NCBI RefSeq assembly: GCF_000373485.1
Contig: NZ_KB891585.1
Coordinates: 609,861-673,860, forward strand
DNA length: 64,000 bases
Reading direction: 5' to 3'
DNA from: Dasania marina DSM 21967
Lineage (GTDB): Bacteria > Pseudomonadota > Gammaproteobacteria > Pseudomonadales > Dasaniaceae
Below the pieces are notes generated by a model. It was not told the DNA's origin and searched no databases. It worked only from the letters and a program-made list of their open reading frames with translations. Positions within the stretch are counted from its first letter, which is position 1; every line of letters starts with the position of its first letter. The position numbers and the translations under genes were made by a program. Below are positions 15,638 through 22,788 of the stretch, in pieces.

Positions 15638-16957
15638 CTAATCAACCTGCTCAAGTTTAAAACCGGCCTTTTGCGCCAAGGCGACAAAATTAGGGAAGGA
15701 CGTGGCCACGTTATCGCAGCCATTAATGGTAATAGTCTCGCTAGCCCGCAAGGCCGCTACCGCAAAAGACATGGCAATACGGTGATCGTGATGGCTTTCT
15801 ATCTCGCCACCGCCAAACACCACCTCTTCAGCACCCCTGCCCTGTATCACTATGCCATCAGCCGTAGGCTGGGCATCAACACCTAAAATGTGCAGGCCGT
15901 CGGCCATAGCTTGAATGCGGTCACTCTCTTTAACCCGCAGCTCTTCGGCGCCGGTTAAAGTGGTAGTGCCCTGCGCGCAGGCGGCCGCCACAAACAATAC
16001 TGGGAATTCATCTATCGCCAGCGGTACTTGATCTGCTGGTATATCTATACCTATCAACTCAGATGAGCGCACCCGTATATCGGCCACGGGCTCGCCACCC
16101 ACTACTCGCTCATTAAATAGGGTGATATCAGCGCCCATTAAACGCAGTACATTAATGACGCCCTCGCGGGTGGGGTTAATGCCTACATGTTGCAACATAA
16201 TCACCGAGCCGGGAGTAATGCTGGCCGCCACCATAAAAAACGCCGCCGAAGAAATGTCGGCGGGGACATCGATAGCCATAGCTGTTAACTGGCCGCCGCC
16301 CTGCAGGCTGGCAGTCGCACCATCCACCGTTACCGGATAACCAAAACCATTGAGCATGCGCTCGGTGTGATCGCGGGTGGGGGCAGGCTCGGTGGTTGAG
16401 GTTTGCCCCTCAGCGTATAGCCCCGCTAATAACACACAGGATTTAACTTGGGCACTGGCCATGGGTAAATCATAGTGTATGGGCCGTAAGCTACCCTTAC
16501 CTTTAATCACCAAGGGCGGCCTACCGCCTTCCTGGGTTTCAACCTCTACCCCCATTAGCCGCAAAGGTGTGGCAACACGCTCCATGGGGCGCTTAGATAA
16601 AGATACATCACCAGTCATAGTCACAGTAAAGTTTTGGCCAGCCGCAATACCGGCCAACAAGCGCATAGAGGTACCCGAGTTGCCTACATACAAATCACCG
16701 GCTGGCGCGGTTAAGCCGTGCAAGCCCACGCCATGTATGGTGACCTTGCCCTCCACCGGGCCGTCAATTTGCACACCCATGGCGCGAAAGGCATTTAAGG
16801 TTGCCAGCGCATCATCGCCCTCCAAAAAGCCTGTCACCTCGGTGACGCCTTCGGCCAAAGAGCCCAACATAATAGAACGATGAGAGATGGATTTATCACC
16901 GGCTACACGAATGTCGCCAAACAGTTGCTGCCCACCGGGGCTGGCTATAAATTTCAC
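15638..16957 (-). CDS. aroA: 3-phosphoshikimate 1-carboxyvinyltransferase (EPSP synthase)
   Basis: AroA joins shikimate-3-phosphate and phosphoenolpyruvate in the chorismate pathway. The 439-residue protein has the N-terminal GDKSISHRSIM motif, NSGTSMRLLAG (about residues 93-103) and the late ESDRIQAMADG motif. The Pro/Thr arrangement resembles the class II form of pseudomonads rather than the E. coli form, an impression from the N-terminal motifs only. In pseudomonads this domain is fused to TyrA; here tyrA lies 5.8 kb upstream, beyond an insertion on the other strand. Confidence 0.96.
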   Translation of the reverse strand: MKFIASPGGQQLFGDIRVAGDKSISHRSIMLGSLAEGVTEVTGFLEGDDALATLNAFRAMGVQIDGPVEGKVTIHGVGLHGLTAPAGDLYVGNSGTSMRLLAGIAAGQNFTVTMTGDVSLSKRPMERVATPLRLMGVEVETQEGGRPPLVIKGKGSLRPIHYDLPMASAQVKSCVLLAGLYAEGQTSTTEPAPTRDHTERMLNGFGYPVTVDGATASLQGGGQLTAMAIDVPADISSAAFFMVAASITPGSVIMLQHVGINPTREGVINVLRLMGADITLFNERVVGGEPVADIRVRSSELIGIDIPADQVPLAIDEFPVLFVAAACAQGTTTLTGAEELRVKESDRIQAMADGLHILGVDAQPTADGIVIQGRGAEEVVFGGGEIESHHDHRIAMSFAVAALRASETITINGCDNVATSFPNFVALAQKAGFKLEQVD

Positions 16958-17351
16958 GGGCTGAGTTACCTTTTAGTAAGCGATGCTTTGTAGTAGTGAT
17001 CTCTTGCGCGGTTTAACGCAACATTTCACACGCTATTCATACAATAGTAGCTGCGACATTTGGCACAGCAGAGAATCAAGGCGCAAATTGTACTGAATTT
17101 GCTAGAGGAACGCACTCAGCAACTGTTAGGCAAATAGTGGCGCTCAATAATTGCACAATACAGCCCCGCAAATGCGCGCTTGATAATCAGCAGCAAAAAG
17201 CGATAATGCTCCCCCAGAAAAAACGCAGACATGTACAAAAAGCAACCAAGCGCAACACCCTCCCCGGTTGTTTGCCCGCTTCTTTTTGAATTAACTCAAC
17301 AACCCTCAACCCATTGGCTTACATTAGCTGGTACGGCAGTAATTCTGTTTT
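16958..17351. other. Divergent intergenic region between aroA and the motor operon
   Basis: This 394-base gap must hold the promoter of the plus-strand DUF3348-motor operon and a promoter for aroA-cmk, which has lost contact with tyrA. I see no clear consensus promoter pair, no tRNA and no open frame of note. A G/C-richer patch near 17250 (CCCTCCCCGG) has no obvious partner. Confidence 0.4.
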
Positions 17352-18125
17352 ATGACTAAACCCGCACTAAACGCTACCCGCAATGGTTCTAGGCTCAGCC
17401 ACCATTTAGCTGAGCTGGGCTTTAACAGCCAAGCCCCCAGCCATAAAAACTTTGCCGAACGCGTAGGCCAACTGATAGGCCTGCCCGGCTCCTTAGTCTT
17501 GTCAGCCCTGCCGCTTAAACCCGTCATTAATAGTAGCAACCCTAGCAGCGAGAAAGCACAGGCCATACAAGCAGATTTTTTGCAGCAGCATAACGAGCTG
17601 ATTCAATTTATAGGCAAGTGCTTCGATAACAGCGAAACCCGTAGACGCTTTCGTCTGCCCGAGGTTGATGCCGACAGTTTTCTCGATAGCAAAAGCACCC
17701 AGGTACTGTATCAGCGTTTTTATATCGCCATGCAAACAGAGCTGGCCAGTAAAGCCTACAGCTTACACAGCTTAGTAAGAGATGCAGCCACCGACTGCTC
17801 GCCCGCACTTAAACAACTTTGTACTTTAGACAAGGCCATGCAGGAAATCCTCAGCGGCCAATTACGCAAAGCCTATAGCCAAATACCAGCAGTCGTAGCT
17901 CAGCGCTACCAACACTGGCAGCAACAATTTTCAGCAGCTGATAGTAGCGAGCAACACGATGCAATTGCAGACGATGCCATATCAGCAGCTATAGAACAGT
18001 TTTGCCAAGAGTTACGGCAATTACTACTCACCGAATTAGATGCACGATTACAAACCACTTATGGCCTAATCGAAGCACTTAACCAACAGGTAACTCCAGC
18101 AACTACAGGTAACAACAAACCATGA
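17352..18125 (+). CDS. DUF3348-type protein, first gene of the motor operon
   Basis: The 257-residue protein has no signal peptide or membrane helix and looks cytoplasmic and mostly helical. I recognise it as the DUF3348 type from overall character (an N-terminal SRLSHHLAELG block, a central LVRDAA...C..L..LD segment, a helical C terminus) and from its partners, since DUF3348, DUF802, OmpA/MotB-like and DUF2894 proteins are encoded together in other proteobacteria. Its stop overlaps the start of the next gene (ATGA at 18122-18125), so translation is coupled. Its role is unknown; as first gene of the operon it may be a cytoplasmic partner of the motor tail (inference). Confidence 0.65.
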   Translation: MTKPALNATRNGSRLSHHLAELGFNSQAPSHKNFAERVGQLIGLPGSLVLSALPLKPVINSSNPSSEKAQAIQADFLQQHNELIQFIGKCFDNSETRRRFRLPEVDADSFLDSKSTQVLYQRFYIAMQTELASKAYSLHSLVRDAATDCSPALKQLCTLDKAMQEILSGQLRKAYSQIPAVVAQRYQHWQQQFSAADSSEQHDAIADDAISAAIEQFCQELRQLLLTELDARLQTTYGLIEALNQQVTPATTGNNKP

Positions 18126-20542
18126 CTAGAGTATTATTTTACAGCGCGTTGCTGCTGGGCGGCCTCGCCATTGTCTGGATGGGCGCCAGTTTTATAGGCA
18201 CAAATAGCTTAGCCTTAATCGTCACGCTGTTAATTGGCCTCGCCTATTTAATCGGTGCATTTGAACTGTTTCATTATAGAAAGCAAACCGCTAGCTTAAG
18301 CCATGCACTTAAACAAATTAACGGCGCGGTAGATAACCTAGACCTATGGTTAAGCCAATTACACCCCGCCTTAAAAAATGCCGTACGCGCTCGCATTAGC
18401 GGCGAAAGCGTAGGCTTACCTGCCCCTGTTGTTAGCCCGTATTTAATTGGCCTGTTAGTGATGCTGGGTTTATTGGGTACGTTTTTAGGTATGGTAGCCA
18501 CCTTACAAGGTGCAGTTAGCGCCCTAGAAGGCACTAGCGAACTACAAGCCATACGCGCTGGTTTAGCCGCGCCTATACAGGGCTTGGGTTTAGCCTTTGG
18601 TACGTCGGTAGCGGGTGTTGCCGCCTCGGCCATGCTGGGTTTAATGTCTACTTTAAGCCGCAGCGAAAGAATCCAAGCTACCGAAACTTTAGATAGTAAT
18701 ATCCATAACGAGCTGCGCGAATTCTCTTTAAACCACAGCAAGCAACAAACCTATAGCGCCCTACAACAACAAGCCGCTGCCCTGCCCGATGTCGCCGACA
18801 AGCTCAACACTCTGGCCGACAAACTCATCACCATGAGTGAAAAGATAGAGCAAAGTTTAACAGCACAGCAGCAGGCATTTCACAGCTCAGTTGCCGCCAA
18901 TTATTCTGAGCTTGCGCTTTCTATAGACAAATCGTTACAACAAACCTTGGCCGATAGCGGCAAGCTAGCAGGCGAAAACATCAAACCCATTATTGAAACT
19001 ATGATGGCAGAGATTAGCAGCAATACTAGCAACACCCATAAAACCCTAACCGACACAGTGCAAGAGCAGCTATCAACATTGCGCAGCGATTGGCAGCAGC
19101 AACAGCTAGCCCACGACGAAGCCAAACTAGCGCAATGGGCGCAAACCTTTGAACAGCTAAACCAAAAAACCCATCAACAATTTGATAACGCTGGCCAGCA
19201 ATTAGTCGCGCAACTGCAACAGGCCTCAGACGCACAGCAAACCTCGGTGCAAACCATTGTTAGCGAATTTTCACAAGCTACCGCTGGCTTAAATGAGCAA
19301 TGGCAACAAGCCAACCAACAAAGCCGCGAGCAGCAACAAGCTATTAGCGCCAGCCTTAGCAGTAGCAGCGAATCACTGACCACACAGCTAAGTGCCAGCA
19401 CAGAAAAATCGTTAAGTGCCATCAGCAAGCTGATCGCCAGCTCGGAAGAACTCGTTAAAACCCGAGCCGAGGCAGAGCAGCACTGGCTCAACCATTATGA
19501 GCAACGCGCCACACAACTTAATGAAAAGCTGGCTGAGCAATTAGGTAGCAACACTCAACAAAACATCACCGAAATCAGTAAGCTGCTAACCAGCACAGAA
19601 GAGCTAGTCAAAACCCGTACCGATGCGGAACAGCATTGGCTACAACATTACGAGCAGCGCGCCACGCAGCTTAATGAAAAACTGGCCGAGCAATTAGGCA
19701 GTAATACCGAAAAGAACATAGCAGAAATCAGCAAGCTATTAGCCAGCGCAGATCAGCTAATCCAATCCAGAACTGAGTCAGAACAAGCATGGCTAAATCA
19801 AAACGAGCAACGTGCTACACAGTTTAACGAAACCCTGCAAAGCACCCTAAACCAGCTGCGTGACGATGAACAACAACGCGGCCTAGCGGCCCTAGAGCGA
19901 TTGGGGCAGTTAGAAGGCAAACTCAGCGAGCACCTATGCGCCTTAGGCCAAGGTTTAGAAGCGCCTATGGCTCGCCTGATAGAAACCGCCTCAGAAACAC
20001 CCAAGGCTGCCGCGCAAGTGATAGAACAACTGCGCAACGAAATTTCTAAAAATCTGGTTAAAGATAACGCCCTATTAGAAGAACGCAGTGGCATTATGAC
20101 CGAGCTAGATAAACTTTCTGCCTCACTGGCACAAACCGCTACCGATCAGCGTCAGTCTATAGAAACGCTAATCACCGCCTCCGAGCAAATGCTAAGCAAG
20201 GCCAGCGAACAGTTTGGCGTAGAGGTAGAGCAACAAGTAGCGCAGCTAGCTGAAGTGAATACCGAATTCAGCGGCAACTCTATAGAAATGGCCAGCCTAG
20301 GCGAAGCCTTTACCCTAGCCGTGCAACATTTTGATGAGTCCAATAACAATCTCATCGCCAGCCTCAGCCGCATAGAAACCAGTTTGCAACAAAGCGGCGC
20401 ACGCAGCGATGAACAACTGGGCTATTACGTGGCGCAAGCCCGTGACTTAATAGACCACAGTATTGTTTCGCAAAAAGCCATGTTTGATGAACTGCGAGAA
20501 ATTAAAACGCAGCAAATTAGCCTCGCCCTAGAGGATACCTAA
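18122..20542 (+). CDS. MotA/TolQ/ExbB-fold motor protein with a long coiled-coil tail (DUF802-type, ZorA-like)
   Basis: The 806-residue protein has two N-terminal membrane helices (about 4-24 and 29-50), a short cytoplasmic segment, then two helices with the proton-channel signature of the MotA/TolQ/ExbB family: LGLLGTFLGMVATLQG (about 114-129) and GLGLAFGTSVAGVAASAMLG (about 154-173). From about residue 190 to the end it is predicted by eye to be one long Gln/Ser/Glu-rich coiled coil, including tandem 51-residue repeats from residue 434. This channel-plus-tail layout is that of ZorA in Zorya anti-phage systems and of DUF802 proteins. It overlaps both neighbours (ATGA and TAATG) and is followed by a MotB-like gene, so the two probably form an ion-driven rotary stator-type complex in the inner membrane. 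Function is inferred from architecture only. Confidence 0.75.
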   Translation: MTRVLFYSALLLGGLAIVWMGASFIGTNSLALIVTLLIGLAYLIGAFELFHYRKQTASLSHALKQINGAVDNLDLWLSQLHPALKNAVRARISGESVGLPAPVVSPYLIGLLVMLGLLGTFLGMVATLQGAVSALEGTSELQAIRAGLAAPIQGLGLAFGTSVAGVAASAMLGLMSTLSRSERIQATETLDSNIHNELREFSLNHSKQQTYSALQQQAAALPDVADKLNTLADKLITMSEKIEQSLTAQQQAFHSSVAANYSELALSIDKSLQQTLADSGKLAGENIKPIIETMMAEISSNTSNTHKTLTDTVQEQLSTLRSDWQQQQLAHDEAKLAQWAQTFEQLNQKTHQQFDNAGQQLVAQLQQASDAQQTSVQTIVSEFSQATAGLNEQWQQANQQSREQQQAISASLSSSSESLTTQLSASTEKSLSAISKLIASSEELVKTRAEAEQHWLNHYEQRATQLNEKLAEQLGSNTQQNITEISKLLTSTEELVKTRTDAEQHWLQHYEQRATQLNEKLAEQLGSNTEKNIAEISKLLASADQLIQSRTESEQAWLNQNEQRATQFNETLQSTLNQLRDDEQQRGLAALERLGQLEGKLSEHLCALGQGLEAPMARLIETASETPKAAAQVIEQLRNEISKNLVKDNALLEERSGIMTELDKLSASLAQTATDQRQSIETLITASEQMLSKASEQFGVEVEQQVAQLAEVNTEFSGNSIEMASLGEAFTLAVQHFDESNNNLIASLSRIETSLQQSGARSDEQLGYYVAQARDLIDHSIVSQKAMFDELREIKTQQISLALEDT
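19421..19879 (+). repeat. Three in-frame tandem repeats of 153 bp (51 residues) in the motor-protein tail
   Basis: Units begin at 19421, 19574 and 19727 and each encodes ISKL...EQ.W...EQRATQ.NE.L. Units 1 and 2 are identical at 42 of 51 residues; the third keeps the first two thirds of the pattern and then drifts. The spacing is exactly 153 bases, so a gain or loss of a unit would change tail length without a frameshift. Confidence 0.9.
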
Positions 20543-21180
20543 TGGCACAGCTTAACGATCAGGATTCACAATCACCACCGGTGTGGGCCATCTTTGGCGA
20601 CCTTATGTCCGGGTTGGTGGGCGTTTTTGTTTTGCTATTAATTTGGGTATTGGGCTTTCAATTAGAATTATCCAAAACCTTGGAAGAAGAAGTCGCCAAA
20701 CGACAAGCCTCCGAGCAACGACGCCTAGCCTTAGAAACCGCACTGGCCGACCCATTAGCCAGCGGCCGCGTAACCCTTAACAATGGCCGCATAGGCATTA
20801 GCGGCAGCGTATTGTTTTCACTCAACTCAGCAGAGCTACAAGCACAGGGGCGAGAGCTACTACACACCTTAGTTACGCCACTGCAGGTTTACCTCAGCGA
20901 GCGCAACGAAATACTAATGGTTAGCGGCTTCACCGATGACCTCCCCATACAGCAAGGTAACAATCGCTTTGATGACAACTGGGAACTGTCGGCACAACGC
21001 GCCCTCACCGTTACCCGCGCCCTAATAGAACAAGGCATGCCTGCCAACATGGTATTCGCCGCCGCCTTTGGTGCGCAGCAACCGGTAGCCAGTAATAGCG
21101 ACAAAGACGGCCGTTCCAAAAACCGCCGCGTAGAAATCGCGCCCGTGCCCAAAAACAGCGAACACGTAGCCGCACAATGA
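20542..21180 (+). CDS. MotB-like protein with OmpA peptidoglycan-binding domain (ZorB-like)
   Basis: The 212-residue protein starts with a short cytoplasmic end and one membrane helix, FGDLMSGLVGVFVLLLIWVLG (described from residue 18). It carries an Asp (D20) at the helix start in the DLMS context seen in MotB/ZorB proton carriers. A short linker leads to an OmpA_C-like domain (about 95-205) with SGFTDDLP, LSAQRALTV and NRRVEI, the residues that contact diaminopimelate in peptidoglycan. This is the expected anchor partner of the upstream channel protein, and the start codon overlaps its stop (TAATG). Confidence 0.8.
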   Translation: MAQLNDQDSQSPPVWAIFGDLMSGLVGVFVLLLIWVLGFQLELSKTLEEEVAKRQASEQRRLALETALADPLASGRVTLNNGRIGISGSVLFSLNSAELQAQGRELLHTLVTPLQVYLSERNEILMVSGFTDDLPIQQGNNRFDDNWELSAQRALTVTRALIEQGMPANMVFAAAFGAQQPVASNSDKDGRSKNRRVEIAPVPKNSEHVAAQ

Positions 21181-21839
21181 GCCTAAACGCCGACAGCAAA
21201 AACAATAGCGACTCAAACGCTAATGAAGAAAACTGCGACAGCTTGGCAGCGACTCTGCAAGAAGCACTGCAACAACTGCAAGAAGCCCAGCAACACCTAC
21301 ACTACCCCAGCCGTTTTTTTCACTTACAGGCACTGCTTAAACGCGCGCAACAAAGCCAGCCGCTATTAAGTCAGTTACTAACAAGTAAAGTGCAACAAGG
21401 ACTAGAAGATTACCAAACACTACTCGCCAATAAAAAAGCGCCCAGTGAAAGCAGCGAAAACCACTCAGCCGCCAGAACCGAGCTAGCGCAACTCAGCCAA
21501 TACTTAAACGGAAAAAACCTAAGCACCAGCACCGCCCTGCCCGCCAGCAGCTTTGACGGCATGCTACAACAGCAAGAACAAAAAGCATTACAATTCGGCT
21601 ATACCGAACAACCGCAACAAACCATAGTCGAGCAATACCGCGACGCCATCACCCAACTCAACACCGAAAAATTTATTAGTCAGGTAATTAACGAAGTGCC
21701 TAAAGATGCGGGGCCGCTTAATGCTCATAGGCTGGTAATTAAAACACTCACCGCTATGCAGACGATATCGCCGGATTATTTACGGCGCATGGTGAATCAA
21801 ATAGATACGATGTTTTATTTGAATGCGGGGGGAAAGTAG
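21177..21839 (+). CDS. DUF2894-type protein, last gene of the motor operon
   Basis: A 220-residue soluble protein: an acidic Asn/Ser-rich start, a helical Gln-rich middle, and a conserved-looking end GPLNAHRLVIKTL..M..ISPDYLRRMVNQIDTMFYL that I associate with DUF2894. No catalytic motif is visible. It overlaps the MotB-like gene by four bases (ATGA). No terminator is visible after it; the RAYT element begins only five bases beyond the stop. Confidence 0.65.
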   Translation: MSLNADSKNNSDSNANEENCDSLAATLQEALQQLQEAQQHLHYPSRFFHLQALLKRAQQSQPLLSQLLTSKVQQGLEDYQTLLANKKAPSESSENHSAARTELAQLSQYLNGKNLSTSTALPASSFDGMLQQQEQKALQFGYTEQPQQTIVEQYRDAITQLNTEKFISQVINEVPKDAGPLNAHRLVIKTLTAMQTISPDYLRRMVNQIDTMFYLNAGGK

Positions 21840-21843
21840 TAAA

Positions 21844-22643
21844 GTAGGGTCAGATAAGACTTTCTCCTATTTGCGGCCTCCCCATTCTTGCCGGCCGTAA
21901 CCTTCTTCCACATAAAGCTTCAATATCAGACTTGAATTTTTCATTTCCAAGTGCCAAGCCTTTGTTCAAAGCTTCTCGAATATCTACCATCAAGTTTTTA
22001 TCAACATGGTCTTTAAATAATTGTCGGTAGCGATTCTGCCTAGTTTCCACATCTTTCGCCAACTTTAAATATTCTTCATGCGGAGTATGTAATTTAATTG
22101 TTTTTCCTAGAGCATGAGATTGGTAACTGGACCACGTATATTCAGCCGGATCATCGACCATTAATGCCCTCACTGGATTCATCTCAATATAACGCTGACA
22201 CTGCAGTAGATAGGTTTCACTTTGAACCAAGCTGGATTTAAACCGCCCCTCCCACAATGTCCCAGTACGATCGTACTCACTATTAAAGTATCTTACATAA
22301 CGTCGCCCTAAAGCCTGCATCATTTTTGAGACAGCATTAGGCATAGTTGGCGTAACTAATAAATGCACGTGATTAGTCATAAATACCCAGGCATGTATCT
22401 GCGCACCAAATTCGGCAGCGTAATCGTCCAGCCAATTCGCATACAACGCTAAGTCCTGCTCTTGAGCAAAACAAAACTGTCGATTATTACCACGCTGAAT
22501 CACATGCTGAGGAATACCCAAAGGGCATATTCTAGGAAGTCTAGCCATGGTTGCATCCTTGTAACCAGTGTAATGTTGAATCTAACTATTCTAACGGTCG
22601 TTAAGCCTTAGGAAAAGACCAGATAAGTTTTATCTGACCCCAC
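21844..22643 (-). mobile_element. RAYT element with terminal inverted repeats
   Basis: A single transposase gene is bounded by a 19-base inverted repeat: GTAGGGTCAGATAAGACTT (21844-21862) and, on the other strand, GTGGGGTCAGATAAAACTT (22625-22643), identical at 17 of 19 positions. The right end also contains the small hairpin AGATAA-GTT-TTATCT (22621-22635). The transposase stop codon lies inside the left repeat. The layout fits REP-associated tyrosine transposases, which move or maintain short palindromes rather than behaving as classical insertion sequences. Confidence 0.75.
21850..22548 (-). CDS. REP-associated tyrosine transposase (Y1/IS200-like)
   Basis: The 232-residue protein begins MARLPRICPLGIPQHVIQRGNNRQ, the usual RAYT start, and contains the HUH motif as MTNHVHLLV (about 57-65), the RYVRYFNSEY segment carrying the nucleophilic Tyr, and GTLWEGRFKS. 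HUH enzymes nick single-stranded DNA through a phosphotyrosine bond. All key residues are present, so the gene appears intact. It is on the opposite strand to the motor operon and points toward its end. Confidence 0.88.
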   Translation of the reverse strand: MARLPRICPLGIPQHVIQRGNNRQFCFAQEQDLALYANWLDDYAAEFGAQIHAWVFMTNHVHLLVTPTMPNAVSKMMQALGRRYVRYFNSEYDRTGTLWEGRFKSSLVQSETYLLQCQRYIEMNPVRALMVDDPAEYTWSSYQSHALGKTIKLHTPHEEYLKLAKDVETRQNRYRQLFKDHVDKNLMVDIREALNKGLALGNEKFKSDIEALCGRRLRPARMGRPQIGESLI

Positions 22644-22788
22644 TAAACATTAGAGATATTTTATTTTTCATTCATAAAGTCCTTTTTAATCTACATTGAA
22701 ATAATCTTATTTTTCAGATAACAAGAAAATCAATAGAGAGATAATACTTAAATATTATGCAACATTTTTATCACAGGCTCACTAAGCC

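What the first reader, a model, noticed from the sequence alone, without database searches (positions are those of the whole stretch)
17352..21839. Candidate undescribed ion-driven motor operon: DUF3348 + ZorA-like + ZorB-like + DUF2894
Seen: four genes overlap by four, one and four bases (ATGA, TAATG, ATGA), so they are made as a unit. The second has two MotA/TolQ/ExbB-type channel helices (LLGTFLGM..., AFGTSVAG...) and a ~600-residue coiled-coil tail. The third has a DLMS-type Asp in its only membrane helix and an OmpA domain. Known: this pair is the ZorA/ZorB architecture, where ions drive rotation of a tail inside the cell in Zorya anti-phage defence. The two outer genes (DUF3348, DUF2894) are not Zorya effectors (ZorC, ZorD, ZorE), and no nuclease or helicase is present. 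Inference: a motor of the same class with a different output, perhaps envelope maintenance, or defence with an unknown effector. I recall these DUFs being encoded together in other proteobacteria, but no function.
Basis: partly seen in the sequence, partly recalled or inferred. Interest (0 to 1): 0.88.

Follow-up and report, generated by a model that had tools for sequence, protein, structure and literature searches.

The report
A type III Zorya anti-phage motor
Four overlapping bacterial genes encode a membrane motor of the anti-virus system called Zorya type III, which was described in 2021 and shown once to block viruses; what its motor acts on inside the cell is still unknown, and in at least two bacterial genera it is present in nearly every species, which is unusual for such a system.

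Summary
In detail: four co-directional genes (DUF3348, ZorA-like, ZorB-like, DUF2894) at 17352-21839 overlap by 4, 1 and 4 bases. 'Undescribed' is wrong. All four hit PADLOC's Zorya type III models (ZorG3 3e-47, ZorA3 2e-221, ZorB3 1e-108, ZorF3 3e-38). That subtype was published in 2021 and one member protects E. coli from phage (PMC8565338). This copy is a lone insert between aroA and tyrA, not in a defence island.

Beyond the published text I could read: all 53 complete loci keep the order G-A-B-F, and no fifth gene recurs beside them. The ion-channel Asp of ZorB is invariant (57/57). The His that ZorB I and II need to bind peptidoglycan is Phe in 57/57. The ZorA tail varies greatly in length, yet its last ~20 conserved residues (RSDEQLAYYVAQAREVIDLS) exceed the channel in conservation and are absent from ZorA I/II. 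Neither small protein shows a nuclease fold. The system is rare across the class (7/274 genomes) but nearly fixed in two genera (20/20 and 87/91 species).

Best reading: an ion-driven phage-sensing motor whose tail tip works through ZorF/ZorG on an unidentified target. A new member of a known kind, with a real open question about its output.

The parts
17352..18125 (+). DUF3348 gene (ZorG3 in PADLOC-DB, called ZorF in the papers), 257 aa, predicted helical bundle
   Evidence: PF11828 1.7e-36; PADLOC ZorG3 3e-47; model pLDDT 88.5, pTM 0.84
18122..20542 (+). zorA3, 806 aa: four membrane segments and a long cytoplasmic tail
   Evidence: PADLOC ZorA3 2e-221; hydropathy; 8vvn_C best in PDB for the profile
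18443..18646 (+). ZorA channel helices (residues 108-175) with the Thr120 / Ser162 ring
   Evidence: Thr120 and Ser162 invariant in 55/55; aligned to GTF and TSV of ZorA I
19421..19832 (+). tandem repeat in the tail: 2.7 units of 153 bp (51 residues)
   Evidence: Tandem Repeats Finder; units shown; segment shared only with the same-genus copy in an 11-sequence alignment
20402..20461 (+). conserved tip of the ZorA tail (residues 761-780)
   Evidence: mean 94% for the commonest residue over 55 sequences against 86-87% for the channel helices; tip HMM does not find ZorA I/II
20542..21180 (+). zorB3, 212 aa: one membrane helix and an OmpA-type wall-binding domain
   Evidence: PADLOC ZorB3 1e-108; PF00691 1.3e-18
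20599..20601 (+). codon of ZorB Asp20, the ion-channel aspartate
   Evidence: Asp in 57/57
20929..20931 (+). codon of ZorB Phe130, at the place of the GHTD His of ZorB I and II
   Evidence: Phe in 57/57 type III; GHT in seven ZorB I/II-like proteins fetched
21177..21839 (+). DUF2894 gene (ZorF3 in PADLOC-DB, called ZorG in the papers), 220 aa
   Evidence: PF11445 3.2e-27; PADLOC ZorF3 3e-38; model pLDDT 80.4, pTM 0.45
16958..22788 (.). extra 5.8 kb between aroA and tyrA that holds the operon and a Y1/RAYT-like gene
   Evidence: the two genes are 44 to 263 bp apart in five other genomes of the family

Best explanation
The operon is a Zorya type III anti-phage system. ZorA and ZorB form an inner-membrane motor of the MotAB class. 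The OmpA domain of ZorB engages the cell wall when a phage perturbs the envelope. Ions then pass ZorB Asp20 against the ZorA Thr120/Ser162 ring and turn the ZorA tail inside the cell. The conserved tip of that tail is the output surface. It docks the two small helical proteins (DUF3348 and DUF2894), which carry the signal to a cellular or phage target. Shown here: membership, conserved channel residues, tip conservation, and no recognisable nuclease in the block or recurring beside it. Shown in the literature for another member: phage protection. Inferred from Zorya I/II: rotation, wall sensing and 5:2 assembly. Pure inference: tip docking of the small proteins and the nature of the target.
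For: All four proteins match type III models and a type III system protected E. coli from phage (PMC8565338). ZorB Asp20 57/57, ZorA Thr120 and Ser162 55/55. Profile matches to solved ZorA I and full-length ZorB I (8vvn). Order G-A-B-F in 53/53 complete loci, and DUF3348 and DUF2894 in the same 7 of 274 genomes, so the two small proteins belong to the machine. Tail tip more conserved than the channel while the tail length varies, as expected of a docking surface at the end of a spacer. dN/dS below 1 for all four genes. In Burkholderia cenocepacia the first one or two genes of Zorya III change in expression during infection (PMC12584637).
Against: No phage test of this copy. The GHTD His needed for wall binding in ZorB I and II is Phe here, so wall sensing may differ. 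No effector is identified. Near-fixation in two genera is unlike most defence systems. Tip docking of the small proteins has no direct support.
Confidence: 0.62

Rival explanations
1. Zorya type III in which the channel itself is the weapon: phage triggers ion leak through ZorAB and loss of the membrane potential, the two small proteins only gate it, and the tail is a sensor or brake.
For: No nuclease fold found in the two small proteins and no recurring fifth gene. The 2021 authors proposed that the two are regulators of ZorAB (PMC8565338).
Against: It would not by itself explain why the far tip of the tail is the most conserved segment. The tail is required for defence in types I and II (PMC11890865).
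Confidence: 0.2
2. A resident cell-envelope or chromosome-associated motor with a housekeeping role, for which phage protection on over-expression in E. coli is a side effect or a secondary use.
For: DUF3348 in 20/20 and 87/91 species of two genera; in the first genus the downstream flank is shared by all five species compared. No defence island around this copy. No relative in viral contigs and no full-length match in phages.
Against: Very patchy elsewhere: 7/274 genomes of the class, 6/11 in the own family, so most relatives live without it. In the second genus the flanks differ between species. Direct phage protection was measured for one member (PMC8565338).
Confidence: 0.15

Closest known systems
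Zorya type III (ZorA3, ZorB3, ZorF3, ZorG3; PADLOC, PMC8565338)
   Same: All four families, gene order and sequence models; this is a member.
   Different: Nothing essential; own features are a lone aroA-tyrA insertion and a 51-residue tandem repeat in the tail.
Zorya types I and II (ZorA/ZorB with ZorC-ZorD or ZorE; PMC11890865)
   Same: ZorA/ZorB motor core, channel Asp and Ser/Thr, OmpA-type wall-binding domain, long cytoplasmic tail.
   Different: No ZorC, ZorD or ZorE; a type III-specific tail tip; Phe for the GHTD His of ZorB.
Flagellar stators MotAB / PomAB
   Same: Four-helix plus one-helix channel architecture and an OmpA-type wall-binding domain.
   Different: Long cytoplasmic tail with a conserved tip in place of a flagellar rotor interface; two extra helical partners.

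Membership tests
Zorya type III | ZorA and ZorB genes flanked by a DUF3348 gene and a DUF2894 gene | tested here: met
   order kept in 53/53 complete loci
Zorya type III | matches to subtype-3 profile models rather than subtypes 1 and 2 | tested here: met
   ZorA3 735 bits against 43 for ZorA1; ZorB3 360 against 76 for ZorB1
Zorya type III | conserved ion-channel Asp in ZorB and Ser/Thr ring in ZorA | tested here: met
   Asp20 57/57; Thr120, Ser162 55/55
Zorya type III | protects against phage | not testable with these tools
   shown for another member in PMC8565338; not for this copy
Zorya type III | 5:2 ZorA:ZorB assembly | not tested
   known for types I and II (PMC11890865); no complex was modelled here
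Zorya type I | ZorC and ZorD genes beside ZorAB | tested here: not met
   the two partners are DUF3348 and DUF2894; PADLOC and Pfam scans of the block and ten neighbours show no ZorC or ZorD
Zorya type II | ZorE HNH nuclease beside ZorAB | tested here: not met
   no HNH or ZorE model hit in the block or the ten neighbours scanned
TolQR / ExbBD energisers | MotA_ExbB (PF01618) over its cut-off in the large subunit, and a small subunit without an OmpA domain | tested here: not met
   no PF01618 hit; partner has PF00691

The most novel reading that the evidence does not exclude
Type III is a motor without an enzyme effector of its own, fixed by selection in whole genera. Its conserved tail tip acts through the two small proteins on a host structure (chromosome, division apparatus or translation) rather than on phage DNA, so that defence is one output of a resident cellular machine.
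Probability: 0.2. Interest if true: 0.8.

Novelty: new member of a known kind. Interest (0 to 1): 0.42.

Why it matters
[quoted passage not shown] Type III is the test of that idea: no nuclease was found in the block, none recurs beside it, and the structure searches gave no nuclease fold for its two small proteins. The invariant tail tip points to one small surface that can be mutated and used as bait to find the output of the motor. The near-fixation in two genera raises the question whether some defence systems are permanent cell machinery there.

Tried and rejected
Undescribed motor: rejected by PADLOC models and PMC8565338. Energiser of TolQR/ExbBD type: no PF01618 hit and wrong partner. 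A fifth gene as hidden effector: clustering of 727 flank ORFs from about 55 loci gave only generic families at scattered places (the top one, LysR-like regulators by my reading, in 7 loci); ORF choice in GC-rich genomes is crude, so a weak association could be missed. Hidden enzyme fold in DUF3348 or DUF2894: Foldseek against PDB gave no match at E <= 0.001 for either. VIA-align gave helical arrangements only (best Z 10.3, rmsd 4.3 over 171 residues to a designed bundle for DUF3348; 7.4, rmsd 2.1 over 69 residues for DUF2894), within what helical proteins reach without relatedness; a family missing from those lists is not excluded. The DUF2894 model has low pTM (0.45). Recent transfer by composition: operon GC 49.2% against 49.2% and 47.9% in the flanks, so no sign. 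Mobile carriage: no relative in viral contigs, no match over 80% of ZorB in phages; among plasmids the matches at 60% identity or more that were listed lie on replicons of about 0.37-3.5 Mb. Promoter and terminator scans were no better than shuffles. Gene-order comparison of flanks from longest ORFs failed in GC-rich genomes and was replaced by tblastx of the flanks. The Nature paper on Zorya structure is not held, so it was not read.

Full report
WHAT IS THERE. Four genes on the + strand at 17352-21839 overlap by ATGA, TAATG and ATGA. They encode proteins of 257, 806, 212 and 220 aa. Pfam finds DUF3348, OmpA and DUF2894 in the first, third and fourth, and nothing significant in the second. 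PADLOC-DB assigns all four to Zorya type III with E-values of 3e-47, 2e-221, 1e-108 and 3e-38. The observation therefore stands, and the claim that the operon is undescribed does not: type III was named in 2021 from 6,401 instances, and the Stenotrophomonas nitritireducens copy lowered phage plating in E. coli (PMC8565338). The names of the two small proteins are swapped between the papers (DUF3348 = ZorF) and the PADLOC database (DUF3348 = ZorG). I follow the database and give the DUF names throughout.

ANATOMY. ZorA has four hydrophobic segments (residues about 4-22, 29-47, 108-126, 157-175) and then a tail of some 625 residues. ZorB has one membrane helix with Asp20 at its start. Against solved structures the best ZorA match is ZorA I of Shewanella (8vvn_C), and ZorB matches 8vvn_B from residue 8 to 200. 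The channel residues are invariant: ZorB Asp20 in 57/57, ZorA Thr120 and Ser162 in 55/55. Two differences from types I and II stand out. First, a His needed by ZorB I (H186) and ZorB II (H141) for peptidoglycan binding and defence (PMC11890865) appears to be Phe130 in 57/57 type III proteins, while the ZorB I/II-like proteins fetched here have the His in a GHT motif. That F130 is the equivalent position, and that H186 and H141 are the GHTD His, rests on the shared sequence context, not on a structure. Second, ZorA length runs from 581 to 1362 aa in 53 loci (some starts are over-extended by the ORF rule, so the upper end is approximate), yet residues 761-780, at the far end of the tail, are 94% conserved, above the channel helices at 86-87%. 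An HMM of the tip does not find ZorA I/II (E >= 0.02), whereas an HMM of the channel does (down to 3.5e-8). The window's own tail is lengthened by 2.7 tandem units of 51 residues, in a tail segment that only the same-genus copy shares among 11 aligned.

THE TWO SMALL PROTEINS. DUF3348 is predicted as a confident helical bundle (pLDDT 88.5, pTM 0.84) and DUF2894 as helices with uncertain packing (80.4, 0.45). Neither has a significant Foldseek match in the PDB; the second-look alignments show common helical arrangements only. No nuclease or helicase was recognised. DUF2894 proteins tend to have a positively charged C-terminus (median net charge +4 in the last 35 residues), which could bind nucleic acid or a membrane; this is weak. 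DUF2894 has the highest dN/dS in most pairs compared and ZorB the lowest in nearly all, with all values below 1; some gene starts in that comparison are uncertain.

GENOMIC SETTING. The ten neighbours scanned are housekeeping genes without a defence assignment; aroA, cmk, rpsA, tyrA, pheA and serC were recognised by me from their translations, not by a search. In five other genomes of the family aroA and tyrA are 44 to 263 bp apart; here 5,831 bp separate them, holding the operon and a Y1/RAYT-like transposase gene. The same-genus genome G001 shares the aroA side (about 390 bp between aroA and the DUF3348 gene in both) but has tyrA on another contig. The operon's GC equals that of its flanks, so the insertion is not recent by that measure.

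DISTRIBUTION. Order G-A-B-F holds in all 53 complete loci from diverse gamma- and betaproteobacteria. Most of these loci were found through ZorB, so the presence of the other three is informative. In 274 genomes spread over the class, the same seven carry DUF3348 and DUF2894; in the window's family 6 of 11 carry DUF3348. Against this patchiness, two genera of one other family carry DUF3348 in 20/20 and 87/91 species. The complete operon was verified in the five loci read from each. In the first genus the downstream flank is shared by all five species compared; in the second the flanks differ between species. Published work calls the Zorya distribution typical of anti-phage systems (PMC11890865); near-fixation at genus level is not typical in my judgement, though a useful defence system can be kept by strong selection.

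HOW IT MOST LIKELY WORKS. By homology with types I and II, ZorAB is an ion-driven motor that senses envelope damage and turns its tail in the cytoplasm (PMC11890865). [quoted passage not shown] For type III no such nuclease was found within the operon or recurring beside it. The most conserved patch outside the channel is the tail tip, so I propose that the tip is the output surface and that the two small helical proteins act there, either to carry the signal to a target or to gate the motor. The first part (motor, membership) is well supported; the second is inference.

LIMITS. No complex was modelled and no function was tested. The loci are phylogenetically related, so conservation counts are not independent. 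The genus-level census used DUF3348 as a proxy for the operon. The reading list is limited to open-licence papers, so published work on type III may exist that I did not see.

Noticed in passing
genera g272 (G333 and relatives) and g210 (G220 and relatives): DUF3348, the marker of type III, is present in 20/20 and 87/91 species of two genera although it is in only 7/274 genomes spread over the class.
   Followed up: partly
21850-22548 (-): A Y1/RAYT-like transposase gene (PF01797) ends 10 bp after the operon; it lies in none of the regions read around the same-genus copy and its GC3 (0.37) is lower than that of its neighbours.
   Followed up: partly
15638-16957 (-), against genomes G004-G010: The AroA of the other genus members G004-G010 is only about 33% identical to that of the window while TyrA is about 70%, at the same aroA-tyrA junction where both are on one contig: looks like replacement of aroA by a different class in place.
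   Followed up: no
PADLOC-DB models against PMC8565338 and PMC11890865: The names ZorF and ZorG are swapped between the database (ZorG = DUF3348) and the papers (ZorF = DUF3348).
   Followed up: no
control genome Corynebacterium glutamicum: The DUF2894 family rings over its cut-off in C. glutamicum, which has no DUF3348 match; either a chance match or a stray relative.
   Followed up: no
genome G311 (C1:419633-420679 and C2:165617-169768): One genome carries both a type II ZorA over the NF033915 cut-off and a type III operon.
   Followed up: no
genus g210, for example G529 and G574: Seven species match DUF3348 in two pieces (profile positions 4-189 and 211-245) within one open frame, as if a short stretch were missing or altered in that clade.
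   Followed up: no
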